Program-made: the position numbers and the translations under genes
Shown: in pieces, positions 56,328 through 64,000 of the stretch
How positions within the stretch are numbered: position 1 is the first letter of the stretch
How the letters are laid out: the number at the start of each line of letters is the position of its first letter
Notes under the pieces: generated by a model
What the model was told of the DNA's origin: nothing
The model's input: only the letters and a program-made list of their open reading frames with translations
The model's database searches: none
From: Streptomyces phaeoluteigriseus
GTDB lineage: Bacteria > Actinomycetota > Actinomycetes > Streptomycetales > Streptomycetaceae
DNA: 64,000 nt
NCBI RefSeq assembly: GCF_001896135.2
Contig: NZ_MPOH02000011.1
Span: 47,829 to 111,828 of the forward strand
Direction: 5' to 3'

Positions 56328-57580
56328 GTGGCGAGGCGTGCGCTGGGGCGGTCGTTCGGGTGGCTGTGGGGGGCGTACGCGGTCAGTGCGTTCGGGACGC
56401 GGCTGGCGTTCGACGCGTTCGCCCTGATCGCGGTGCTCGTGCTGCACGCCGGGCCGGGCGAGGTGGCGGCGCTGGCGGCCGTGGGGCCCGCGGTGGGGGC
56501 GGCGCTGGCGGTGCCGCTCGGGCCGTGGGTGGAGTTCCGCCGCAAGCGGCCGGTGATGATCACGGCGGACCTGGTGCGGTGCGCGGCTCTGGCGAGCGTC
56601 CCCGTGGCGTTCGCGCTGGGCGCTCTCGGCGTCGGGCAGCTGCTGGTGGTGTCGATGGTGGTGGCCGCGGCGACATCTGTTTCACGGCGGCGAGCGGCGC
56701 CTTCCTGAGGCATCTGCTGCCGCCGGAGGACCTGCTCGTCGCCAACGGCCGTCTCGAGTCGACGACGTGGACGGCGACCATGCTGGGGCCGCCGCTGGGC
56801 GGGGCCGCGGTCGGCCTGTTCGGGCCGGTGGTGACGGTGGCGGCGGACGCGGTCGGTCATCTGCTGTCGGCGGCGGGCCTGCGCGCGGTCGGCGGGCACG
56901 AACCGGCGCCCGTGCGGAAGGAGCCCGCGCGCCGGCTGACCGCCGGGGACGTCGTCGCGGGCTGGCGCCATCTCCTCACCCACCCGGCGCTGCGCCCACT
57001 GTTTCTCAACGCGCTGCTCGTCAACGGCCTGATCATGGCAGCCTCCCCGCCGCTGGCGGTGCTGATGCTGGGCCCGCTGGGTTTCCCGCCCTGGCAGTAC
57101 GCCCTCGCCTTCGCCGTGCCCTGCACCGGCGGGCTGATCGGCGCCCGGCTGGCCCCGCGGCTGGTCGCCCGGTACGGGCGGCGCCGGGTGTTGCTGGCCG
57201 CGGGGACACTGCGCGCGTGCTGGCCGGTGGGGCTGGCCTTCGTGCGGCCGGGGCCCGCCGGACTGGCCCTCGTGATGGCCGTGGAGCTGGGGCTGATCAC
57301 CTGCATCGGCGTCTACAACCCGGTCCTCGCCACCTCCCGGCTGGAGCTGACCCCGACCGACCACCTCGCCCGCATGCTCGCGGCGTGGTCGGTCAGCACC
57401 AAGGCCGCCATCGCCACGCTGACCGCCCTCTGGGGCGTCCTGGCGGCGTTCACCGGCGCGCGTACGGCCATCGCGCTGGCGGGCGTGCTCCTGCTGGCGA
57501 CCCCGTTGCTGCTCGCAACCGTGCGGCGTGACGGGGCGTCCGTGACCAAAGGGGCCCCGGAGACCGCCGAGGTCCCCTGA
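56328..57580 (+). pseudogene. MFS transporter, one-base frameshift
   Basis: About 417 residues when joined, from GTG 56328 (GGAAGGGAG upstream). About 12 membrane helices: FGWLWGAYAVSAFGTRLAFD, AVGPAVGAALAVPLGPWVEF and VAFALGALGVGQLLVVSMVV in the first frame to 56672. After restoring one lost G come DICFTAASGAFLRHLLPPED, GPPLGGAAVGLFGPVVTVAA, FAVPCTGGLIGARLAPRLVA and a normal end. Resembles MFS_3 exporters of macrolide type; substrate unknown. The frameshift falls in GCGGCG, like others in the window, so it may be a read error. Confidence 0.85.
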
Positions 57581-57606
57581 CACGTCACCGACGGACGGAG
57601 AGAACG

Positions 57607-58500
57607 ATCTCAGGCTCGACGAACCGCCGTACTCTGCTCACCACCGCGGGCGCCGTCACCGCGGCCTCCCTGCTGGGCGCCGGTCAGGCCGCCCACGCCG
57701 CCGACGGCACCGACCCCGTCGGCGTGCGCCTGCGCGCCCTGGAGGAGGCGCACGGTGCCCGCCTCGGCGTCTTCGCGTACAACGTGCGCACCCGGCGCTC
57801 CGTGCGCCACCGCGCCGCCGAACGCTTCCCGGTCTGCTCCCTGTTCAAGGTCCTCGCGGTCGCCGCCGTGCTGCGCGACCTGGACCGGGACGGCGAGGTC
57901 CTGGCCCGCCGCATCCACTTCACCGAGGACGACCTGGTGGAGAACTCGCCCGTCACCGAGGAACACGTGCTCGACGGCATGACCGTCGCCGAACTGTGCG
58001 ACGCGGCGATCCGCCGCAGCGACAACACGGCCGCCAACCTGCTGCTGCGCGAGCTGGGCGGCCCGGCCGCGGTCACCCGCTTCGCCCGATCGATCGGTGA
58101 CCGGTTCACCCGGCTCGACCGGTGGGAGCCGGAGCTGAACTCCGCCGAACCCTGGCGGGTGACGGACACCACGACCCCGTACGCGATCGGCCGCTCCTAC
58201 GCCCGGCTGGTGCTGGGCGACGAGCTGGCGGCCGACGACCGGCGGCGGCTGACGGACTGGATGCTCGCCAACCGCACCAGCGACAACCGTTTCCGCGCCG
58301 GGCTGCCGCCCACCTGGACGCTCGCCGACAAGACCGGCGGCGGCTGGTACGGCGCCAACAACGACGCCGGGATCGCCTGGACCCCCGACGGCACGCCCGT
58401 CGTGCTGGTGGTCCAGGTCACCGCGCCGGAACGGGAAGCGGCCTACGACCACGAGCTGATCGTGGAGACGACGAAGGTGCTGGCGGCGACGCTCGGCTGA
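57607..58500 (+). CDS. Class A beta-lactamase, apparent ATC start codon
   Basis: About 297 residues. A Tat-like signal NRRTLLTTAGAVTAASLLGA ends AHAA near residue 35. All class A residues are present: SLFK (Ser78), SDN (138-140), EPELN (Glu174), KTG (242-244). Serine hydrolase for beta-lactams, exported. The coding frame with the signal has no ATG or GTG: at the position set by the GGACGGAGAG ribosome site stands ATC (57607-57609). The only in-frame alternatives are CTG 57577 inside the previous gene, or GTG 57724, which would delete the signal. Read as a non-standard start or an error for ATG. Confidence 0.85.
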   Translation: MSGSTNRRTLLTTAGAVTAASLLGAGQAAHAADGTDPVGVRLRALEEAHGARLGVFAYNVRTRRSVRHRAAERFPVCSLFKVLAVAAVLRDLDRDGEVLARRIHFTEDDLVENSPVTEEHVLDGMTVAELCDAAIRRSDNTAANLLLRELGGPAAVTRFARSIGDRFTRLDRWEPELNSAEPWRVTDTTTPYAIGRSYARLVLGDELAADDRRRLTDWMLANRTSDNRFRAGLPPTWTLADKTGGGWYGANNDAGIAWTPDGTPVVLVVQVTAPEREAAYDHELIVETTKVLAATLG

Positions 58501-58542: not shown

Positions 58543-59526
58543 TCACGCGCCGTCCGGGTCGGAGCCGGGGGTCAGCACGGGAACGGTGTCCGGGGTGCCG
58601 TTCGGGGACGGCTCCGCGGAGGCGTCCCACAGCTGGTTGAAGCGCCGGATCAGCGGCTGGACCTCGTCCGCGCGGGCGTTCACCGTGGTCGAGGAGTTCA
58701 CGCTGAGCTGGTCGGCGTGGATCTCGTACGTCAGCGCCCCGTCGAAGACGATCCAGTCGATCATCTTGCCGCGCCGCAGATGGGCCGGGAGCTGTTCCAG
58801 GACCACCACCCGCACCTGGATGCCGATCTGGCGCTGTTCCTCGCAGATCGGGGCGAGCGCCGAGCGCTCCTCGCGTTCCTTGACGATGAACAACCGCCGC
58901 ACGGTGACGCCCCGTTCGAGGATCGCCTCGCGCTGGGCGGTGAGATAGCGGCTCGCGGGTTCGGTGGACCAGAAGCCGTCGTCGACGACGCTGGTGCTGA
59001 TGGCGTCGATGCTGCTTCTGGTGCACTTGGTCAGCGTCATCAGCCAGTCGTGGTTCTCGCCGGGCGTCTCGGCGCTGAGGTTGGTGAGGTCCTCCATCTG
59101 CGCGGCGAGGCGGTTGATCTCCTCGTGCGCGAACTCGTGCAGGATGTCGGGCCCCATGGAGACGACCTTGGTGGCGTGCTCGGCGAGCCGGGGCACCCCG
59201 TCGCCGCGCAGCTTCTCCACCTCGTTGAAGAGTTTCGTGGCCTCGCCTATGTCGGCGAAGCGCTTCTCCACGACGTCCTTCAGTTCGCTGAGCTGGTTCA
59301 CGAACGACGCCATGAACTGGACGATCAGGACCGTGCCGCCGCACAGCACGGACAGGACCAGCTGCCAGGGTCCTTCCTCCTTCGGCAGCAGGACGTTGGT
59401 GAGTACGTAGACCACTCCGCCCACCACTACGGTGACCAGGAGCTTCAGCGTGAGCTGACGTGCGCTGTCGTTGTCGGACCGCCGTTGCTGGTCGCTTCGG
59501 AAGTACGAGTTCGTCGGTGCGCTCAT
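58543..59526 (-). CDS. Membrane-anchored protein of unknown function upstream of the SCO2521-type cluster's end
   Basis: 327 residues from ATG 59524-59526, with GGGGGAG upstream. Two membrane helices (about 26-48 LTLKLLVTVVVGGVVYVLTN and 56-76 WQLVLSVLCGGTVLIVQFMA) precede a charged helical stretch (about 78-130). A C-terminal domain follows with STSVVDDGFWSTEPASRYLT, GVTVRRLFIVKEREERSALA, IGIQVRVVVLEQL and MIDWIVFDGALTYEIHAD. The last part resembles the phospholipase-D-like fold of proteins that receive signals, but catalytic HxK motifs are absent. Same direction as, and 170 bases downstream of, the SCO2521-family gene, so possibly the last member of that cluster. Function unknown. Confidence 0.75.
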   Translation of the reverse strand: MSAPTNSYFRSDQQRRSDNDSARQLTLKLLVTVVVGGVVYVLTNVLLPKEEGPWQLVLSVLCGGTVLIVQFMASFVNQLSELKDVVEKRFADIGEATKLFNEVEKLRGDGVPRLAEHATKVVSMGPDILHEFAHEEINRLAAQMEDLTNLSAETPGENHDWLMTLTKCTRSSIDAISTSVVDDGFWSTEPASRYLTAQREAILERGVTVRRLFIVKEREERSALAPICEEQRQIGIQVRVVVLEQLPAHLRRGKMIDWIVFDGALTYEIHADQLSVNSSTTVNARADEVQPLIRRFNQLWDASAEPSPNGTPDTVPVLTPGSDPDGA

Positions 59527-59696: not shown

Positions 59697-60668
59697 TCAG
59701 GACGGGGTCAGCGCGTCGCTCCGGGTGAGGAGCTGGACGGCGAGCTGGTCCCGGATGCGCTGGGCCAGGCTCGTCCACTGTCTGCTGAATCCCGGTGTCT
59801 CCTCCAGTTCCTGCCACAGGGTGTTCAGGGTGCGGTCGACGCGGGCCTGCGGCATCCACAGGTGCAGCAGGTGGTCGACGAGCGGGCGCAGCACCTTGAG
59901 TGCGGCGCGGCCGTCGTCGGAGCCCAGCCGCAGGCCGTCGAGTTTGTCGGCGACGGTGGTGAGCAGCCAGTCGTGCAGGGCGAGGTCCTCGCAGAGCGCG
60001 GCCGCCGCGGCGGGTGAGGTCCCTCGGGGCAGCCGCAGTTCGACGACCCGTCGGCCGTCGTCGGCGACGGTGAAGTGCGGGGCGGCCGGCTCACCCTCGG
60101 CGGCCGGTGAGGCGGCCCAGCGCAGGCTGGTGTCGGTGGTGGTGAGCGGGGTGTCGTAGTCGAGCAGCCGGTGCTGGCGGGAGATCCGGGCGAGGAGGCT
60201 CTCGGCGACCGAGCCGACGTCCAGCTCGTCCGGCTGCTGTCCCGCCAGGAAGCCCTTGAGGACGGCCTGTGGGGCGAGTCTGCCGACGGGGACGAGGACG
60301 CCGGGGCGGACCAGGTAGTAGCCCCAGGGCTGCCGCCGGTCGGGGCCGTCGGCGGGAGCCGAGAAGTGGGCGGTGGCCTGGAGCACCCTTCCTTCGACGA
60401 GGGCGGCGCGGGCGGTCACGGTGCCGACGGCACGGATCTTGGCGCCGCCCGCGGTGGGCAGCCGGCAGTCGACGCCCGTGAGGACGTCCGGGGAGACGGC
60501 GTGCCGGTTGGGGCGCCGGGAGAGCCGGACGCGTTCGTCGGCGCGCAGCCGCAGCAGCCGTTCGGCGACCTGCTCGTCGACCGCGTCCCGGGTGGGTAAC
60601 AGGCAGGTGCGGACCTCCCCGCAGGCGAGGACCGTCTCCGCTTCGCCGGACTCCTTCGGGCCGCTCAT
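59697..60668 (-). CDS. SCO2521 family protein
   Basis: 323 residues from ATG 60666-60668 (MSGPKESGEAETVLACGEVR). Soluble, no signal or catalytic motif recognised. Notable segments: VRTCLLPTRDAVDEQVAERL, SRRPNRHAVSPDVLTGVDCR, WGYYLVRPGVLVPVGRLAPQ and a C-terminal helical end. Name given from recall of the actinobacterial family always clustered with SCO2522-SCO2525 homologues. It starts one base after the SCO2522-type stop, so is co-expressed. Function unknown. Confidence 0.75.
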   Translation of the reverse strand: MSGPKESGEAETVLACGEVRTCLLPTRDAVDEQVAERLLRLRADERVRLSRRPNRHAVSPDVLTGVDCRLPTAGGAKIRAVGTVTARAALVEGRVLQATAHFSAPADGPDRRQPWGYYLVRPGVLVPVGRLAPQAVLKGFLAGQQPDELDVGSVAESLLARISRQHRLLDYDTPLTTTDTSLRWAASPAAEGEPAAPHFTVADDGRRVVELRLPRGTSPAAAAALCEDLALHDWLLTTVADKLDGLRLGSDDGRAALKVLRPLVDHLLHLWMPQARVDRTLNTLWQELEETPGFSRQWTSLAQRIRDQLAVQLLTRSDALTPS

Positions 60669-60669
60669 G

Positions 60670-61655
60670 TCACAGCCCCGGCGGGAAGACGTAGGAGGTG
60701 CGGTCGACGACGGCCGTGGGGACGGGCAGGCCCTCGGCTGCGGACCGCTCGGCGACCTGTCGTAACGCCTCGGACTCGACGTGGACCTGGTCGAGGACGA
60801 CGCGCACGGCGTGTTCGACGGGCAGGAAGCGGGCCGGGAGGACGCTGCACGTGGCGTACGCGGTGAAGGGCGTGGCGAGCGGGTTGAGGCGCACCACGGG
60901 CGGCAGGGCGTCCCACTCGGCGGGGAACTCCTCGGCGTCCCAGGGGGTCGGGGTGAGCACGGCCTGGCCGTCGTGGCGCAGCAGGCCGAGCCGGACCAGC
61001 TGCCAGACGGAGGCGAGGAAGGCGCAGGACCAGAGGCGTTCGTCCTCGGGTCCGCTCCACAGTTCGACGTCGACGAAGACGGAGTGGCCGCGGGCGCCGG
61101 TCTCGCTGGGCGGTGCCCAGACGGCGCCGGTGGCGTCCAGGGCGGCGGAGGTGCGGTGGGAGGGCGTGCGCCGGCCGTTGGTGAGCCAGCCGGTGCGGCT
61201 GACGGGCGGGCGGAAGCCACTGCTGCCGGGCGGCGGGGATTCCACCAGCCGGTGCAGGACGCCTCGGCGAGTTCGGTCCGGTCGCGGTGGCCGGGTTCGG
61301 CGACGGCGCAGCCGGACTCGCGGGCCAGGTAGTCGATGCTGAGGCCGGCCTCGGCGGCGGCCTCCAGCAGGGGCGGTATGAGTTCGGCGGGGGTGGACAG
61401 CCGGCTGAAGTAGTCGTCGATGAGGAAGCAGGTGCTGATCCGGGGCCGTTTGCCGGCCGGCAGCGGGCCCACGGCGGCGCGGGCGGCGTCCACCCAGGGC
61501 CGTACGGCGGCGAAGTGGCGGCGCAGCCGGGCGGGGCCTTCGGCGAAGTCCTCCATGTACAAGTGGCCGAGTTCCAGGGAGAGATGGGAGAACGGCACGG
61601 ATTCGGTGCGCGGCTGAGCGCTGGTCTCCCGGAAGACGGTTCCCGGCCCGCTCAC
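60670..61655 (-). pseudogene. SCO2522 family protein, one-base frameshift
   Basis: About 328 residues when joined. GTG 61653-61655 overlaps the P-loop gene's stop (GTGA). The first part (FSHLSLELGHLYMEDFAEGP; KRPRISTCFLIDDYFSRLST; ELIPPLLEAAAEAGLSIDYL) runs to about 61260, where one C is missing in GGACGCC. With it restored the protein continues VLHRLVESPPPGSSGFRPPV ... GHSVFVDVELWSGPEDERLW and ends PTAVVDRTSYVFPPGL. A family of unknown function with a conserved LIDDYF motif, part of the SCO2521-SCO2525-type cluster. The break matches the error pattern elsewhere in the window. Confidence 0.75.
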
Positions 61656-62572
61656 AGTTGCCCCCAGTGCTTGTCCTCGGTCAGGCGCTGGGCGAGTTCG
61701 CCCATCTTCTGCCAGGTCTCCACATTGGCGATCCGCCGGTCGTGCACGTCTTCGTCGGTGATGAGCCTCTCCTGCCACTGGAGAACGGGCTCCAGCGGAA
61801 TGGACGACAGGACGCGTGACTTGCCGATGCCGCGGCCGGCCGCGATTTCCTCGAGCTGGGTGTCGCACTGCCGCATCCACGCGTACTGCGCGGCCGAGAC
61901 CTGCGACCACATCGGGGAGTCGAGATCGGGTACGGCGGCCCGGACGAACCGGATCGAGGCGGAAAGCGCGTCGGTGTCGTGGCCCATGGCGACACCGGCC
62001 TGCACAATGCCCTGTTTTCCGTACACGAGTTCGGCGGCGGCCATGACGTGCTGACGGGTCCAGCGGTGATAGACGAGCCAGCGCGTTTTCAGGCGGCCGA
62101 GTCCGCCGCGGGGTGAGGTGGCGGCGAGGGCGAGGTCCATCGCATAACTGCGTCCGGCGCTCAAGTCCACGATGATGACGTCGAATTCGCGTTTCAGGCG
62201 CAGGACGAGATCGACGCAGCGGTGCAGGTTCTCCTCGTCGGTGACGAATTCGCCGCCGGTGCGGTCGCCGGGCAGCAGGACGAGCCGTCCCGAGCCGCCG
62301 GGCCGGCTGCGCAGCACGGGGTGTTCGGTGCGCGACCAGACGTCGACGCGCAGGGGTTCGCCGGTCTTGCCCTTGAGGTAGGAGTGCAGGCCGCGTCCCT
62401 CGGCCTCGGAGAGGACGTCGGGCAGGTCGAAGACGGCGGCCGCGGTGGGCGAGCCGAAGTCGAAGTCCAGGTAGCAGACGTCGTCCCCGTCCAGCGCGCG
62501 GTGGTAGGCGAGGTTGGCGCTGGTCACGGACCGGCCGGTGCCCCCCTTGTCGGAGGCGGCGAACACGAGCAC
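61652..62572 (-). CDS. SCO2523 family ParA/MinD-like protein with variant P-loop
   Basis: 306 residues from GTG 62570-62572. Deviant-Walker ATPase fold: VFAASDKGGTGRSVTSANLA (residues 3-22). In ordinary ParA/MinD proteins this loop ends GK(T/S); here it is GRS, Arg in place of the catalytic Lys. Other fold elements are kept: VCYLDFDFGSPTAAAVFDLP (Walker A' Asp region), FDVIIVDLSAGRSYAMDLAL (Walker B) and WLVYHRWTRQHVMAAAELVY. Altered nucleotide binding or loss of hydrolysis is likely, suggesting a switch or scaffold. Tightly packed with neighbours (3 bases after SCO2524, 4-base overlap with SCO2522). Confidence 0.85.
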   Translation of the reverse strand: MLVFAASDKGGTGRSVTSANLAYHRALDGDDVCYLDFDFGSPTAAAVFDLPDVLSEAEGRGLHSYLKGKTGEPLRVDVWSRTEHPVLRSRPGGSGRLVLLPGDRTGGEFVTDEENLHRCVDLVLRLKREFDVIIVDLSAGRSYAMDLALAATSPRGGLGRLKTRWLVYHRWTRQHVMAAAELVYGKQGIVQAGVAMGHDTDALSASIRFVRAAVPDLDSPMWSQVSAAQYAWMRQCDTQLEEIAAGRGIGKSRVLSSIPLEPVLQWQERLITDEDVHDRRIANVETWQKMGELAQRLTEDKHWGQL

Positions 62573-62575
62573 GTC

Positions 62576-64000
62576 TCAGACCCCCCGGTAGTCGGAGCCG
62601 CCGCGGGCCCGGGAGAGGGAGTCCAGCCGGCTGAGCACGCCGAGGGCGAGTGCGTAGGCGGTGCCGGGTTGTTCGTCGACGAGCAGGCGGGCCCGGCGCA
62701 GGTCGGCCTCGATGCCCTTGACCTCCTCGCCCTGGGGGCTCTTGGCGGTGGGCGCGGGCTGGCCCATCTGCTCCTTGCCGAAGAGGTGGGCCGCCTCGCT
62801 GATCAACGCCCTTGCCAGCAGCGAGAGTTCGGCGCTGCGGATGGGCGGCTGGTCGTAGAGGGCGTGCGCGGCGACCATGCACTCGGTGACGCGCTCGGTC
62901 ATGCTCCAGGACACCGGGCCCTGCCGTTCCGGGGACTCCGGGTAGACGGCGTGCACGTTGTCCCAGAGACCGACGCCCGGTCCGTCGCTGATGCGGCGCT
63001 GCCAGAGGTGGTCGAGGATGTCCTCGGCCAGCCGCAGCAGCCGGTCCTGGGAGGCGATGTTCCGGGACAGTGAGCAGAGTTGGATGGTCCGCTTGAGCAG
63101 TTGGGCGGAGAAGTCGGTCATCGTCCACTTCATGGGCGGACCGAGGGCCTCGCTGCCCAGCAGGGGCAGGGTGACACCGGGGTTGTGCAGGCCGACCGCG
63201 GGGTCGTCGCGGGTCATTCCGCTGGTGATCCGGCCGCGTTCGGCGAGGCGCTCCATGACGGCGACGGTGCGGGTGAGGTCGTCGTCGGTGGCGCGGCGGC
63301 GGACCAGGTCGTGGACGAGGATGGAGGCGACGGAGAGGGAGAAGTACTCCGACTCCAGTTGCTGGAGGGTGGTGCGCCAGGGGATCTCCTCCAGCGGCCA
63401 GGTGCCTTCGCCGAAGCGCGCGATGGCCGACCAGTACTGCTGGGTGATCTCCCAGCGCAGCCGCAGGGCGTCGGCGAGTTTCTGCTGTTCGGCGGTGAGC
63501 AGGCCGAGGACGAGGGTGCGCTCGGAGAACAGGTCGGGGATGCCGTCGAGGGCGACGACGGTGAAGTACAGGTAGGGCGTGGGGTGGGCGACGCCGGCGG
63601 GCTGTTTGCCGATGGCCTCGCCCGTCTGCGGTTCCACCTCGACCTCGGGGGCGCCTTTCACCAGGCTCCATGCCCAGCCGCACTCGAAGAGGCGGTTCTC
63701 GTTGCGCAGGTCGTCGGTGACGTCGGTGTCGAGACCGAGGGTGACGCTCTCGCTGATGACGGCGCGCAGGGCCTTGAAGCGCTCCTGGAAGCGCTGGAGG
63801 ACCTGGCGTTCGGAGAGCCGGCCCTGGCCGAGCAGCCGGGTGAGGGACTGCCCCTGGTCGGAGGAGACGTCGACGACGTTGACGGTGAAGGAGCGCAGCA
63901 GGCTCACCATGGCGGCGGTCAGCCGGGCGCTGGTGGCGTCCCAGAGCCGGTCGATCTGCTTGATCGTGCTCGCGCGCTGGGTCTTGCCCCGGTAGACCTT
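62576..64000 (-). CDS. SCO2524 family protein, 5' end beyond the window
   Basis: The frame is open from the window edge (KVYRGKTQRASTIKQIDRLW at the edge), so the true start lies outside; an internal ATG at 63908-63910 is not needed. At least 474 residues, helical and soluble: LQRFQERFKALRAVISESVT, LYFTVVALDGIPDLFSERTL, ADALRLRWEITQQYWSAIAR, ESEYFSLSVASILVHDLVRR. Ends GGSDYRGV three bases before the P-loop gene. Family name from recall. A SAM-methyltransferase-type SCO2525 homologue is expected just outside the window. Function unknown. Confidence 0.7.
   Translation of the reverse strand, partial: KVYRGKTQRASTIKQIDRLWDATSARLTAAMVSLLRSFTVNVVDVSSDQGQSLTRLLGQGRLSERQVLQRFQERFKALRAVISESVTLGLDTDVTDDLRNENRLFECGWAWSLVKGAPEVEVEPQTGEAIGKQPAGVAHPTPYLYFTVVALDGIPDLFSERTLVLGLLTAEQQKLADALRLRWEITQQYWSAIARFGEGTWPLEEIPWRTTLQQLESEYFSLSVASILVHDLVRRRATDDDLTRTVAVMERLAERGRITSGMTRDDPAVGLHNPGVTLPLLGSEALGPPMKWTMTDFSAQLLKRTIQLCSLSRNIASQDRLLRLAEDILDHLWQRRISDGPGVGLWDNVHAVYPESPERQGPVSWSMTERVTECMVAAHALYDQPPIRSAELSLLARALISEAAHLFGKEQMGQPAPTAKSPQGEEVKGIEADLRRARLLVDEQPGTAYALALGVLSRLDSLSRARGGSDYRGV

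What the first reader, a model, noticed from the sequence alone, without database searches (positions are those of the whole stretch)
59697..64000. SCO2521-SCO2524 family cluster: uncharacterised four-gene system with an altered ParA P-loop
Four tightly packed genes (gaps of 1-3 bases or 4-base overlaps) encode three proteins of unknown function and a MinD/ParA-like protein whose P-loop reads KGGTGRS, with Arg where the nucleotide-binding Lys should be. The rest of the fold (LDFDFGSP, VIIVDLSAG) is intact, which argues for a kept, altered function rather than decay. From recall, these families occur together across Streptomyces with a SCO2525-type methyltransferase. The upstream-facing membrane protein at 58543-59526 may belong.
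Basis: partly seen in the sequence, partly recalled or inferred. Interest (0 to 1): 0.6.

Follow-up and report, generated by a model that had tools for sequence, protein, structure and literature searches.

The report
Streptomyces operon with arginine-fixed ParA-like protein
A group of genes of unknown purpose is kept together in many Streptomyces relatives, and one of its proteins always carries a change that, in well-studied relatives, stops the molecular switch from turning over, so it may be a natural locked switch.

Summary
The cluster is real and conserved. NCBIfam already names its families (SCO2521-SCO2525); searches found no paper explaining it. In 296 genomes of the class, SCO2521, 2522, 2523 and 2524 pass their cut-offs in the same 29 genomes and never apart. 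The "membrane protein that may belong" does: same strand, last gene of the operon, in 25 of 29 carriers and 101 of 109 loci. SCO2525 methyltransferase is in 19 of 29. None of the seven genes, GNAT included, was found beside leuA in 19 non-carrier Streptomyces; recO was in view in 15. The P-loop Arg is fixed in 109 of 109 loci through four synonymous codons. FxSxx-COOH TPR proteins share KGGTGRS. In V. cholerae ParA2 (KGGTGKS), K-to-R abolishes ATPase, keeps some ATP binding and immobilises the protein (PMC10287910). Best reading: a non-cycling ParA/MinD-fold scaffold in a membrane-linked complex affecting growth and development. Models: SCO2524 is an (alpha/alpha)6 barrel; SCO2522 resembles class I aaRS cores in fold only. 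Corrections: SCO2522 is frame-broken in this assembly; SCO2524 runs past the window.

The parts
62576..64000 (-). SCO2524 family protein, C-terminal 474 codons; the gene runs on to L009:10273 (window position 64444), 622 aa in all; predicted (alpha/alpha)6 barrel
   Evidence: (NF040567, 900.6 bits, cut-off 300)
61652..62572 (-). SCO2523 family variant P-loop protein, 306 aa, MinD/ParA-type
   Evidence: (NF040564, 470.3 bits, cut-off 200)
62528..62548 (-). P-loop KGGTGRS of SCO2523; Arg14 codon at 62531-62533 where the catalytic Lys of ParA/MinD would be
   Evidence: Arg in 109 of 109 loci; codons CGC 80, CGG 13, CGT 11, CGA 5
60670..61655 (-). SCO2522 family gene, frame-broken in this assembly near 61262; in relatives one open frame of about 320 aa, class I aaRS-like fold by model
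   Evidence: (164.8 and 271.3 bits in two frames)
59697..60668 (-). SCO2521 family protein, 323 aa, no fold recognised by sequence; not modelled
   Evidence: (NF040565, 391.9 bits, cut-off 150)
58543..59526 (-). Membrane protein (MEM), 327 aa: two hydrophobic segments near the N-terminus, C-terminal DUF6879 match; last gene of the operon
   Evidence: (PF21806, 24.3 bits, cut-off 23.9)

Best explanation
An obligate complex of four soluble proteins (SCO2521-2524) is held at the membrane by the co-directional two-helix protein MEM. SCO2523 is its nucleotide-bound organiser: it has the ParA/MinD-type motifs with the signature Lys (K9), both switch I Asp and the Walker B Asp kept, but Arg14 in place of the catalytic Lys. 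By analogy with K-to-R mutants of ParA, it binds ATP, probably as a dimer, hydrolyses it little or not at all, and so makes a static, long-lived assembly platform instead of a cycling gradient or oscillator. SCO2524 (barrel) and SCO2522 (aaRS-like Rossmann core) would be substrate- or ligand-binding subunits. SCO2525 methyltransferase and the GNAT are accessory modifying enzymes that come and go with the unit. The output is on growth and morphological differentiation. Shown: co-occurrence, gene order, fixed Arg, MEM membership, absence at the same site in non-carriers. Predicted by model: the two folds. Inferred: complex formation, ATP locking, membrane anchoring, developmental role.
For: Same 29 of 296 genomes for all four genes above cut-off. 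MEM strong hits in 25 genomes, all carriers. Order -GNAT,2525,2524,2523,2522,2521,MEM in exactly that form in 80 of 109 loci. Spacers estimated from profile starts are short: median 3 bases between 2524 and 2523, -7 and -8 for the next two pairs, 113 to MEM. Core pairwise protein distances correlate at 0.92-0.95 over 66 loci (no species-tree control, and the core-GNAT values of 0.86-0.91 are not much lower). Among the longest blocks of SCO2523 conserved at 97% or more are S7-T17 and D36-T43, with D136 and S138-S142, the nucleotide site of the fold; the stretch R164-H175, of unknown role, is similarly conserved. ParA2 K124R (KGGTGKS to KGGTGRS): no ATPase, lower but present MANT-ATP binding, DNA affinity like wild type, immobile foci; P1 ParA K122R is described there as anchoring irreversibly (PMC10287910, passages seen). 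HupS-dependent operon sco2521-sco2526, and SCO2525 stated to be necessary for normal growth (PMC11472566, passage). HrdB target 'with a morphogenetic role' (PMC6344877, passage).
Against: No interaction, nucleotide or localisation data for any member turned up in the searches made (14, 16, 32). The Arg could as well abolish nucleotide binding; the eLife paper calls related MinD/ParA-like domains inactive (PMC7159879). The phenotype is reported for SCO2525, the first gene, and could be polar or belong to the methyltransferase alone; the original 2004 paper could not be read. Four of 29 carriers lack MEM, and SCO2525 was not found above cut-off in 10 of 29. SCO2523 falls below the cut-offs of all ParA/MinD-type Pfam and NCBIfam models it matched.
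Confidence: 0.4

Rival explanations
1. A biosynthetic set: SCO2522 (adenylate- or aminoacyl-handling Rossmann enzyme), SCO2524 (barrel enzyme acting on a sugar or terpenoid-like substrate), SCO2525 (NNMT-type N-methyltransferase) and the GNAT make a small signalling molecule, with SCO2523 as regulator and MEM as anchor or exporter.
For: SCO2525 is over the cut-off of PF01234 NNMT/PNMT/TEMT (50.8 bits, cut-off 25). The barrel fold is that of sugar epimerases and glycosidases, with squalene-hopene cyclases lower in the list. SCO2522 has many invariant polar residues (D78 D79 Y80, H183, D188, E190). No member, GNAT included, was found beside leuA in 19 non-carriers.
Against: Methyltransferase and GNAT are missing in some carriers that keep the four-gene core. 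No canonical HIGH or KMSKS motif in the SCO2522 consensus, and no sequence-profile link to ArgS, CysS or MetG. Catalytic residues of the barrel could not be mapped.
Confidence: 0.27
2. SCO2523 is a working ATPase in which Arg replaces Lys functionally, so the module runs an ordinary ParA/MinD-type positioning cycle with SCO2524, 2521 or 2522 as cargo adaptor or activator.
For: Signature Lys, switch I DxD and Walker B region are conserved at 97% or more, as in active relatives. Natural deviant Walker A variants exist, such as McdA SGGQGKT and BcsQ RGGVGTT in the table of PMC9178275 (passage).
Against: K-to-R abolished ATPase in ParA2 (PMC10287910). No ParB- or MinE-like match among the members in the Pfam and NCBIfam scans.
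Confidence: 0.18
3. A conflict or immunity module of the multicellular-actinobacteria type, built from inactivated enzyme modules, related to FxSxx-COOH/VMAP systems.
For: SCO2523's best non-self NCBIfam match is the KGGVGR-motif domain (38.7 bits). FxSxx-COOH TPR-type proteins with identical KGGTGRS lie about 11-15 kb from SCO2523 in three genomes of one genus (two of the three named, the third by clustering; P-loops). Patchy presence at one site.
Against: No PADLOC match beyond a P-loop stretch and one weak hit that recurs in 1 of 50 SCO2521 proteins. The core is conserved and in fixed order, without a hypervariable member seen. FxSxx neighbours are seen in one genus only.
Confidence: 0.1
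4. In this particular strain the module is decaying: SCO2522 is a real pseudogene.
For: One-base gap against the three nearest relatives; the only locus of 108 with SCO2522 in two pieces.
Against: The same assembly shows frame breaks in an MFS gene of the window (56328-57610) and in a CysS-family gene elsewhere, which points to indel errors of the assembly. The other genes of the cluster are intact.
Confidence: 0.05

Closest known systems
NCBIfam SCO2521-SCO2525 families (NF040564-NF040568)
   Same: All genes score over the curated cut-offs (for SCO2522 only the C-terminal piece in this assembly)
   Different: Those entries name families; MEM has no NCBIfam match and the GNAT no match over a cut-off; no mechanism was seen in print
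ParA/MinD deviant Walker A ATPases (MinD, Soj, Mrp/ApbC)
   Same: P-loop region, signature Lys, switch I DxD, Walker B region; best PDB matches by profile are Mrp/ApbC-type proteins, then MinD
   Different: Catalytic Lys replaced by Arg in 109 of 109 loci; below curated cut-offs; no known partner recognised
KGGVGR-motif variant AAA domain (NF047398) of FxSxx-COOH TPR proteins
   Same: Identical KGGTGRS P-loop, best non-self NCBIfam match
   Different: 38.7 bits against a cut-off of 90; stand-alone 306 aa protein; other partners
V. cholerae ParA2 K124R and P1 ParA K122R (laboratory mutants)
   Same: Same residue exchange in the same motif, KGGTGKS to KGGTGRS (ParA2)
   Different: Mutants of cycling ATPases; here the exchange is natural and fixed
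Streptomyces conservons (make-up recalled)
   Same: Small operon with a membrane protein and a P-loop protein; cvn12 is in the same HupS-only group in PMC11472566
   Different: No histidine-kinase, roadblock, DUF742 or Ras-like domain found in the Pfam scan

Membership tests
NCBIfam SCO2521/2522/2523/2524/2525 families | score over curated cut-off | tested here: met
   391.9/150, 271.3/200 (C-terminal piece of SCO2522; N-terminal piece 164.8), 470.3/200, 900.6/300, 313.1/240
NCBIfam SCO2522 family | one full-length open frame in this genome | tested here: not met
   two frames
ParA/MinD deviant Walker A ATPases | signature Lys (first K of KGG) | tested here: met
   K9 at 97% or more in 109 loci
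ParA/MinD deviant Walker A ATPases | catalytic Lys of KGGxGK[ST] | tested here: not met
   Arg in 109 of 109 loci
ParA/MinD deviant Walker A ATPases | switch I DxD and Walker B Asp | tested here: met
   DFDFGSP 108 of 109 and DLDLGSP 1; D136 at 97% or more
ParA/MinD deviant Walker A ATPases | score over Pfam cut-off (CbiA, ParA, MipZ, AAA_31) | tested here: not met
   25.0/25.4, 22.9/27.1, 17.9/20.7, 17.6/27
ParA/MinD deviant Walker A ATPases | ATP binding and hydrolysis | not testable with these tools
   biochemistry needed
KGGVGR-motif variant AAA ATPase (NF047398) | score over cut-off 90 bits | tested here: not met
   38.7 bits
KGGVGR-motif variant AAA ATPase (NF047398) | Arg in place of the P-loop Lys | tested here: met
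class I aminoacyl-tRNA synthetases (SCO2522) | catalytic-core Rossmann fold | tested here: inconclusive
   VIA Z 12.7, rmsd 3.6, 188 residues, all 50 listed rows titled class I aaRS; Foldseek best E 0.076 and not an aaRS, a CysRS second; hhalign probability at most 0.4% against argS/cysS/metG
class I aminoacyl-tRNA synthetases (SCO2522) | HIGH and KMSKS signatures | tested here: not met
   consensus has ELGH within strand 1 and the protein ends just after the last strand
(alpha/alpha)6 barrel, AGE/cellobiose 2-epimerase type (SCO2524) | barrel fold | tested here: met
   VIA Z 20.1, rmsd 4.1, 341 residues; pLDDT 92.1; Foldseek best E only 5e-3
(alpha/alpha)6 barrel, AGE/cellobiose 2-epimerase type (SCO2524) | catalytic histidines of the epimerases | not tested
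   model coordinates are not among the files of the Python box
Streptomyces conservons | roadblock, DUF742, kinase-like and Ras-like members (recalled) | tested here: not met
   no such Pfam domain in the 7 sequences scanned
known anti-phage systems (PADLOC) | match to a system's models | tested here: inconclusive
   only a P-loop stretch and one weak hit; the library covers known and candidate systems of 2023 only

The most novel reading that the evidence does not exclude
A new kind of actinobacterial membrane-linked machine: a ParA/MinD-type protein naturally fixed in the ATP-locked (K-to-R) state nucleates a permanent assembly of two repurposed enzyme folds (an aaRS-like Rossmann core without its signatures and an epimerase-type barrel) plus SCO2521 on a DUF6879 membrane anchor, tuned by a methyltransferase and a GNAT, to control hyphal growth and development.
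Probability: 0.22. Interest if true: 0.75.

Novelty: new variant of a known kind. Interest (0 to 1): 0.52.

Why it matters
ParA/MinD proteins are known for ATP-driven cycling. A family in which the cycling-dead exchange is fixed and yet the whole nucleotide site is under strong constraint would show that the locked state itself is useful. It would also supply partners (SCO2521, 2522, 2524, MEM) and a tractable host, S. coelicolor, where the first gene already has a reported role in growth and development. The question becomes testable with one deletion series and one ATPase assay.

Tried and rejected
Sequence search of solved structures with profiles of SCO2524, 2521, 2522 and MEM gave nothing usable (best E 0.0092, 1.3, none up to 5, 0.45). 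Pfam on all members of the SCO2521 and SCO2522 alignments gave only scattered weak hits; DUF6829 for SCO2524 reached 4 of 12 members at E up to 1, best 0.0031, too weak to use. The class I aaRS relation of SCO2522 was tested by profile-profile comparison and failed at sequence level, while ArgS, CysS and MetG (24, 28 and 24 sequences) find each other at 96-99.6%; it is kept only as a fold resemblance. The first version is discarded: it used a wrong alignment option and too few sequences. HEC-02B for SCO2521 did not recur (1 of 50). The FxSxx-COOH neighbourhood is not general: three genomes of one genus. Phage link: only a ParA-like PHROG for SCO2523. Papers: three papers mention the S. coelicolor locus tags, one passage each; searches found no other in this library; DUF6879 and DUF6829 are in no paper held; searches added only background papers.

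Limits of the counts. The 296 genomes are an even draw of the class and include the window's own. The SCO2523 profile also matches 44 further genomes at E up to 0.001, all below its cut-off, as expected of a P-loop family; 'never apart' is meant above cut-off. In one carrier (G292) the cluster is split over two short contigs and SCO2524 has one stop inside. The 109 loci are the window's own, 28 from the class survey and the best 80 of 415 confirmed in genome contigs; at least two contigs are in both sets (L043/L141, L055/L079, equal contig lengths), and 79 of the 80 bear Streptomyces in the title, one 'Actinobacteria bacterium'. L062 was mis-called by my gene caller but found by the profile search. 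Hydropathy is a loose test: 8 of 100 MEM segments, cut to the profile, pass no window and 23 only one, while 46 of 108 SCO2524 proteins also pass at least one. In the empty-site test the SCO2522 query was its C-terminal piece only, and recO was not in view in 4 of 19 genomes. The distance correlations have no species-tree control.
Full report
What is there. The window is a stretch of contig C3 of an 8.6 Mb genome; the nearest named relatives are Streptomyces, SCO2524 being 97% identical to that of S. bobili. Reading past its right end (L009) gives, all on the minus strand in transcription order: SCO2525-type methyltransferase (L009:10338-11135), SCO2524 (622 aa), SCO2523 (306 aa), SCO2522, SCO2521 (323 aa) and a membrane protein, MEM (327 aa). 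A GNAT gene lies divergently beside the methyltransferase. NCBIfam has curated families for the first five. The SCO2522 frame is broken in this assembly near 61262: N- and C-terminal pieces match the family in two frames, and the three nearest relatives differ by a single one-base gap there. An MFS gene in the window (56328-57610) and a CysS-family gene elsewhere in the same genome (probably mshC; name recalled) are also split between frames, so an assembly error is more likely than decay.

Is it a unit? Among 296 genomes of the class, each of the four families passes its cut-off in the same 29 genomes and in no other; SCO2523 alone has weaker matches in 44 more, as any P-loop family would. 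SCO2525 passes in 19, all inside that set; five further genomes hold weaker relatives. A profile of MEM gives strong matches in 25 genomes, all carriers, and three weak ones elsewhere (59.8, 32.1 and 27.2 bits). In 109 loci (the window's, 28 from the survey and 80 of 415 confirmed in genome contigs) the order GNAT (divergent), 2525, 2524, 2523, 2522, 2521, MEM is found exactly in 80. Totals are 2523 109, 2524 109, 2522 108, 2521 107, MEM 101, GNAT 100 and 2525 99, some cut by contig ends. In three loci of one genus, and a fourth cut by a contig end, MEM sits between 2523 and 2522, so it travels with the operon and is not a chance neighbour. In the window's own genus 9 of the 28 genomes drawn carry the cluster, eight of these nine with recO and uppS in the same 20 kb. 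For the 19 that do not, the leuA region was fetched: recO and uppS lie in view in 15 of 19, and none of the 19 holds any of the seven genes at 45 bits or more (for SCO2522 only the C-terminal piece was the query). The module is thus most simply gained or lost whole, GNAT included, at one chromosomal site of Streptomyces.

The altered P-loop. It reads KGGTGRS in 107 of 109 loci, KGGAGRT in one and KGGACRS in one: Arg in all. Its codons are CGC 80, CGG 13, CGT 11 and CGA 5, so the amino acid is held while the codon drifts. The signature Lys, both switch I Asp and the Walker B Asp are as conserved as the P-loop, which argues that the nucleotide site is in use; another stretch, R164-H175, is similarly conserved and unexplained. 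By profile the nearest solved relatives are Mrp/ApbC-type proteins and MinD; the protein is below the cut-offs of the four Pfam models it matched. The same KGGTGRS stands in FxSxx-COOH TPR-type proteins found near the cluster in three genomes of one genus. [quoted passage not shown] In V. [quoted passage not shown] that paper cites P1 ParA K122R as irreversibly anchoring (PMC10287910, passages).

The other members. The SCO2524 model (44 sequences, pLDDT 92.1) matches (alpha/alpha)6 barrels, foremost sugar epimerases and glycosidases, Z 20.1 over 341 residues at 4.1 A; squalene-hopene cyclases and complement C5 follow at Z 16-17. Foldseek's own best E is 5e-3. The SCO2522 model (of the intact L041 relative, 47 sequences, pLDDT 82.6, residues 154-184 unreliable) gives class I aminoacyl-tRNA synthetases in all 50 listed rows, best Z 12.7 over 188 residues at 3.6 A. 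Foldseek alone gives no significant match (best E 0.076; a CysRS is second), and profile-profile comparison shows no sequence relation. Its consensus lacks canonical HIGH and KMSKS, so it is not filed as a synthetase. SCO2525 belongs to PF01234, NNMT/PNMT/TEMT. MEM has one or two hydrophobic segments in 92 of 100 sequences and a DUF6879 match at E up to 1 in 42 of 45, best 6.8e-11. SCO2521 was not modelled and remains without a fold.

Literature. PMC11472566 places an operon sco2521-sco2526 under HupS and calls SCO2525 necessary for normal growth (passage). PMC6344877 lists SCO2525 as an HrdB target with a morphogenetic role (passage). PMC3017869 mentions its mutagenesis (passage). PMC6344877 and PMC3017869 point to Gehring et al. 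2004 in their reference lists; that paper is not held. I recall its abstract as reporting effects of SCO2525 on colony growth and development. No paper of the library holds the tags SCO2522, SCO2523 or SCO2524.

Reading. The most likely mechanism is a non-cycling, nucleotide-bound ParA/MinD-type organiser within an obligate membrane-linked complex that affects growth and development. Steps shown: co-occurrence, order, fixed Arg, presence or absence as a unit. Steps predicted: the folds of SCO2522 and SCO2524. Steps inferred: complex, ATP lock, anchoring and output. The main rival is a biosynthetic set.

Noticed in passing
window 56328-57610 (+): An MFS transporter gene is split between two frames; it is one frame in L070, L099 and L052. 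With the broken SCO2522 and a split CysS-family gene (G000:C7:555129-556078) this suggests indel errors in the assembly.
   Followed up: partly
L049, L065, L067 (one genus): FxSxx-COOH system TPR-type proteins with an N-terminal KGGTGRS domain lie about 11-15 kb from SCO2523.
   Followed up: partly
L059, L061, L066: In three loci without MEM a convergent membrane protein (about 270 aa in two of them; pore-like C-terminal segment by eye; no Pfam match) lies next to SCO2521.
   Followed up: partly
L062:12662-13970: In a fourth locus without MEM a protein that looks like an XRE-type regulator (by eye; not searched) follows SCO2521 in the same direction.
   Followed up: no
L114:12767-15182: An insertion of about 2.4 kb separates SCO2523 and SCO2522, and the same copy has KGGACRS in the P-loop; perhaps a decaying copy.
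   Followed up: no
recO-leuA interval, L228-L246: The interval between recO and leuA is variable among Streptomyces (beta-lactamase, sialidase, tyrosine-phosphatase-like genes come and go); in L241 and L243 recO is next to the TerB-like gene.
   Followed up: partly
G101, G173, G191, G216, G243: Five non-carrier Streptomyces hold an SCO2525 relative at 120-141 bits, below the family cut-off of 240.
   Followed up: no
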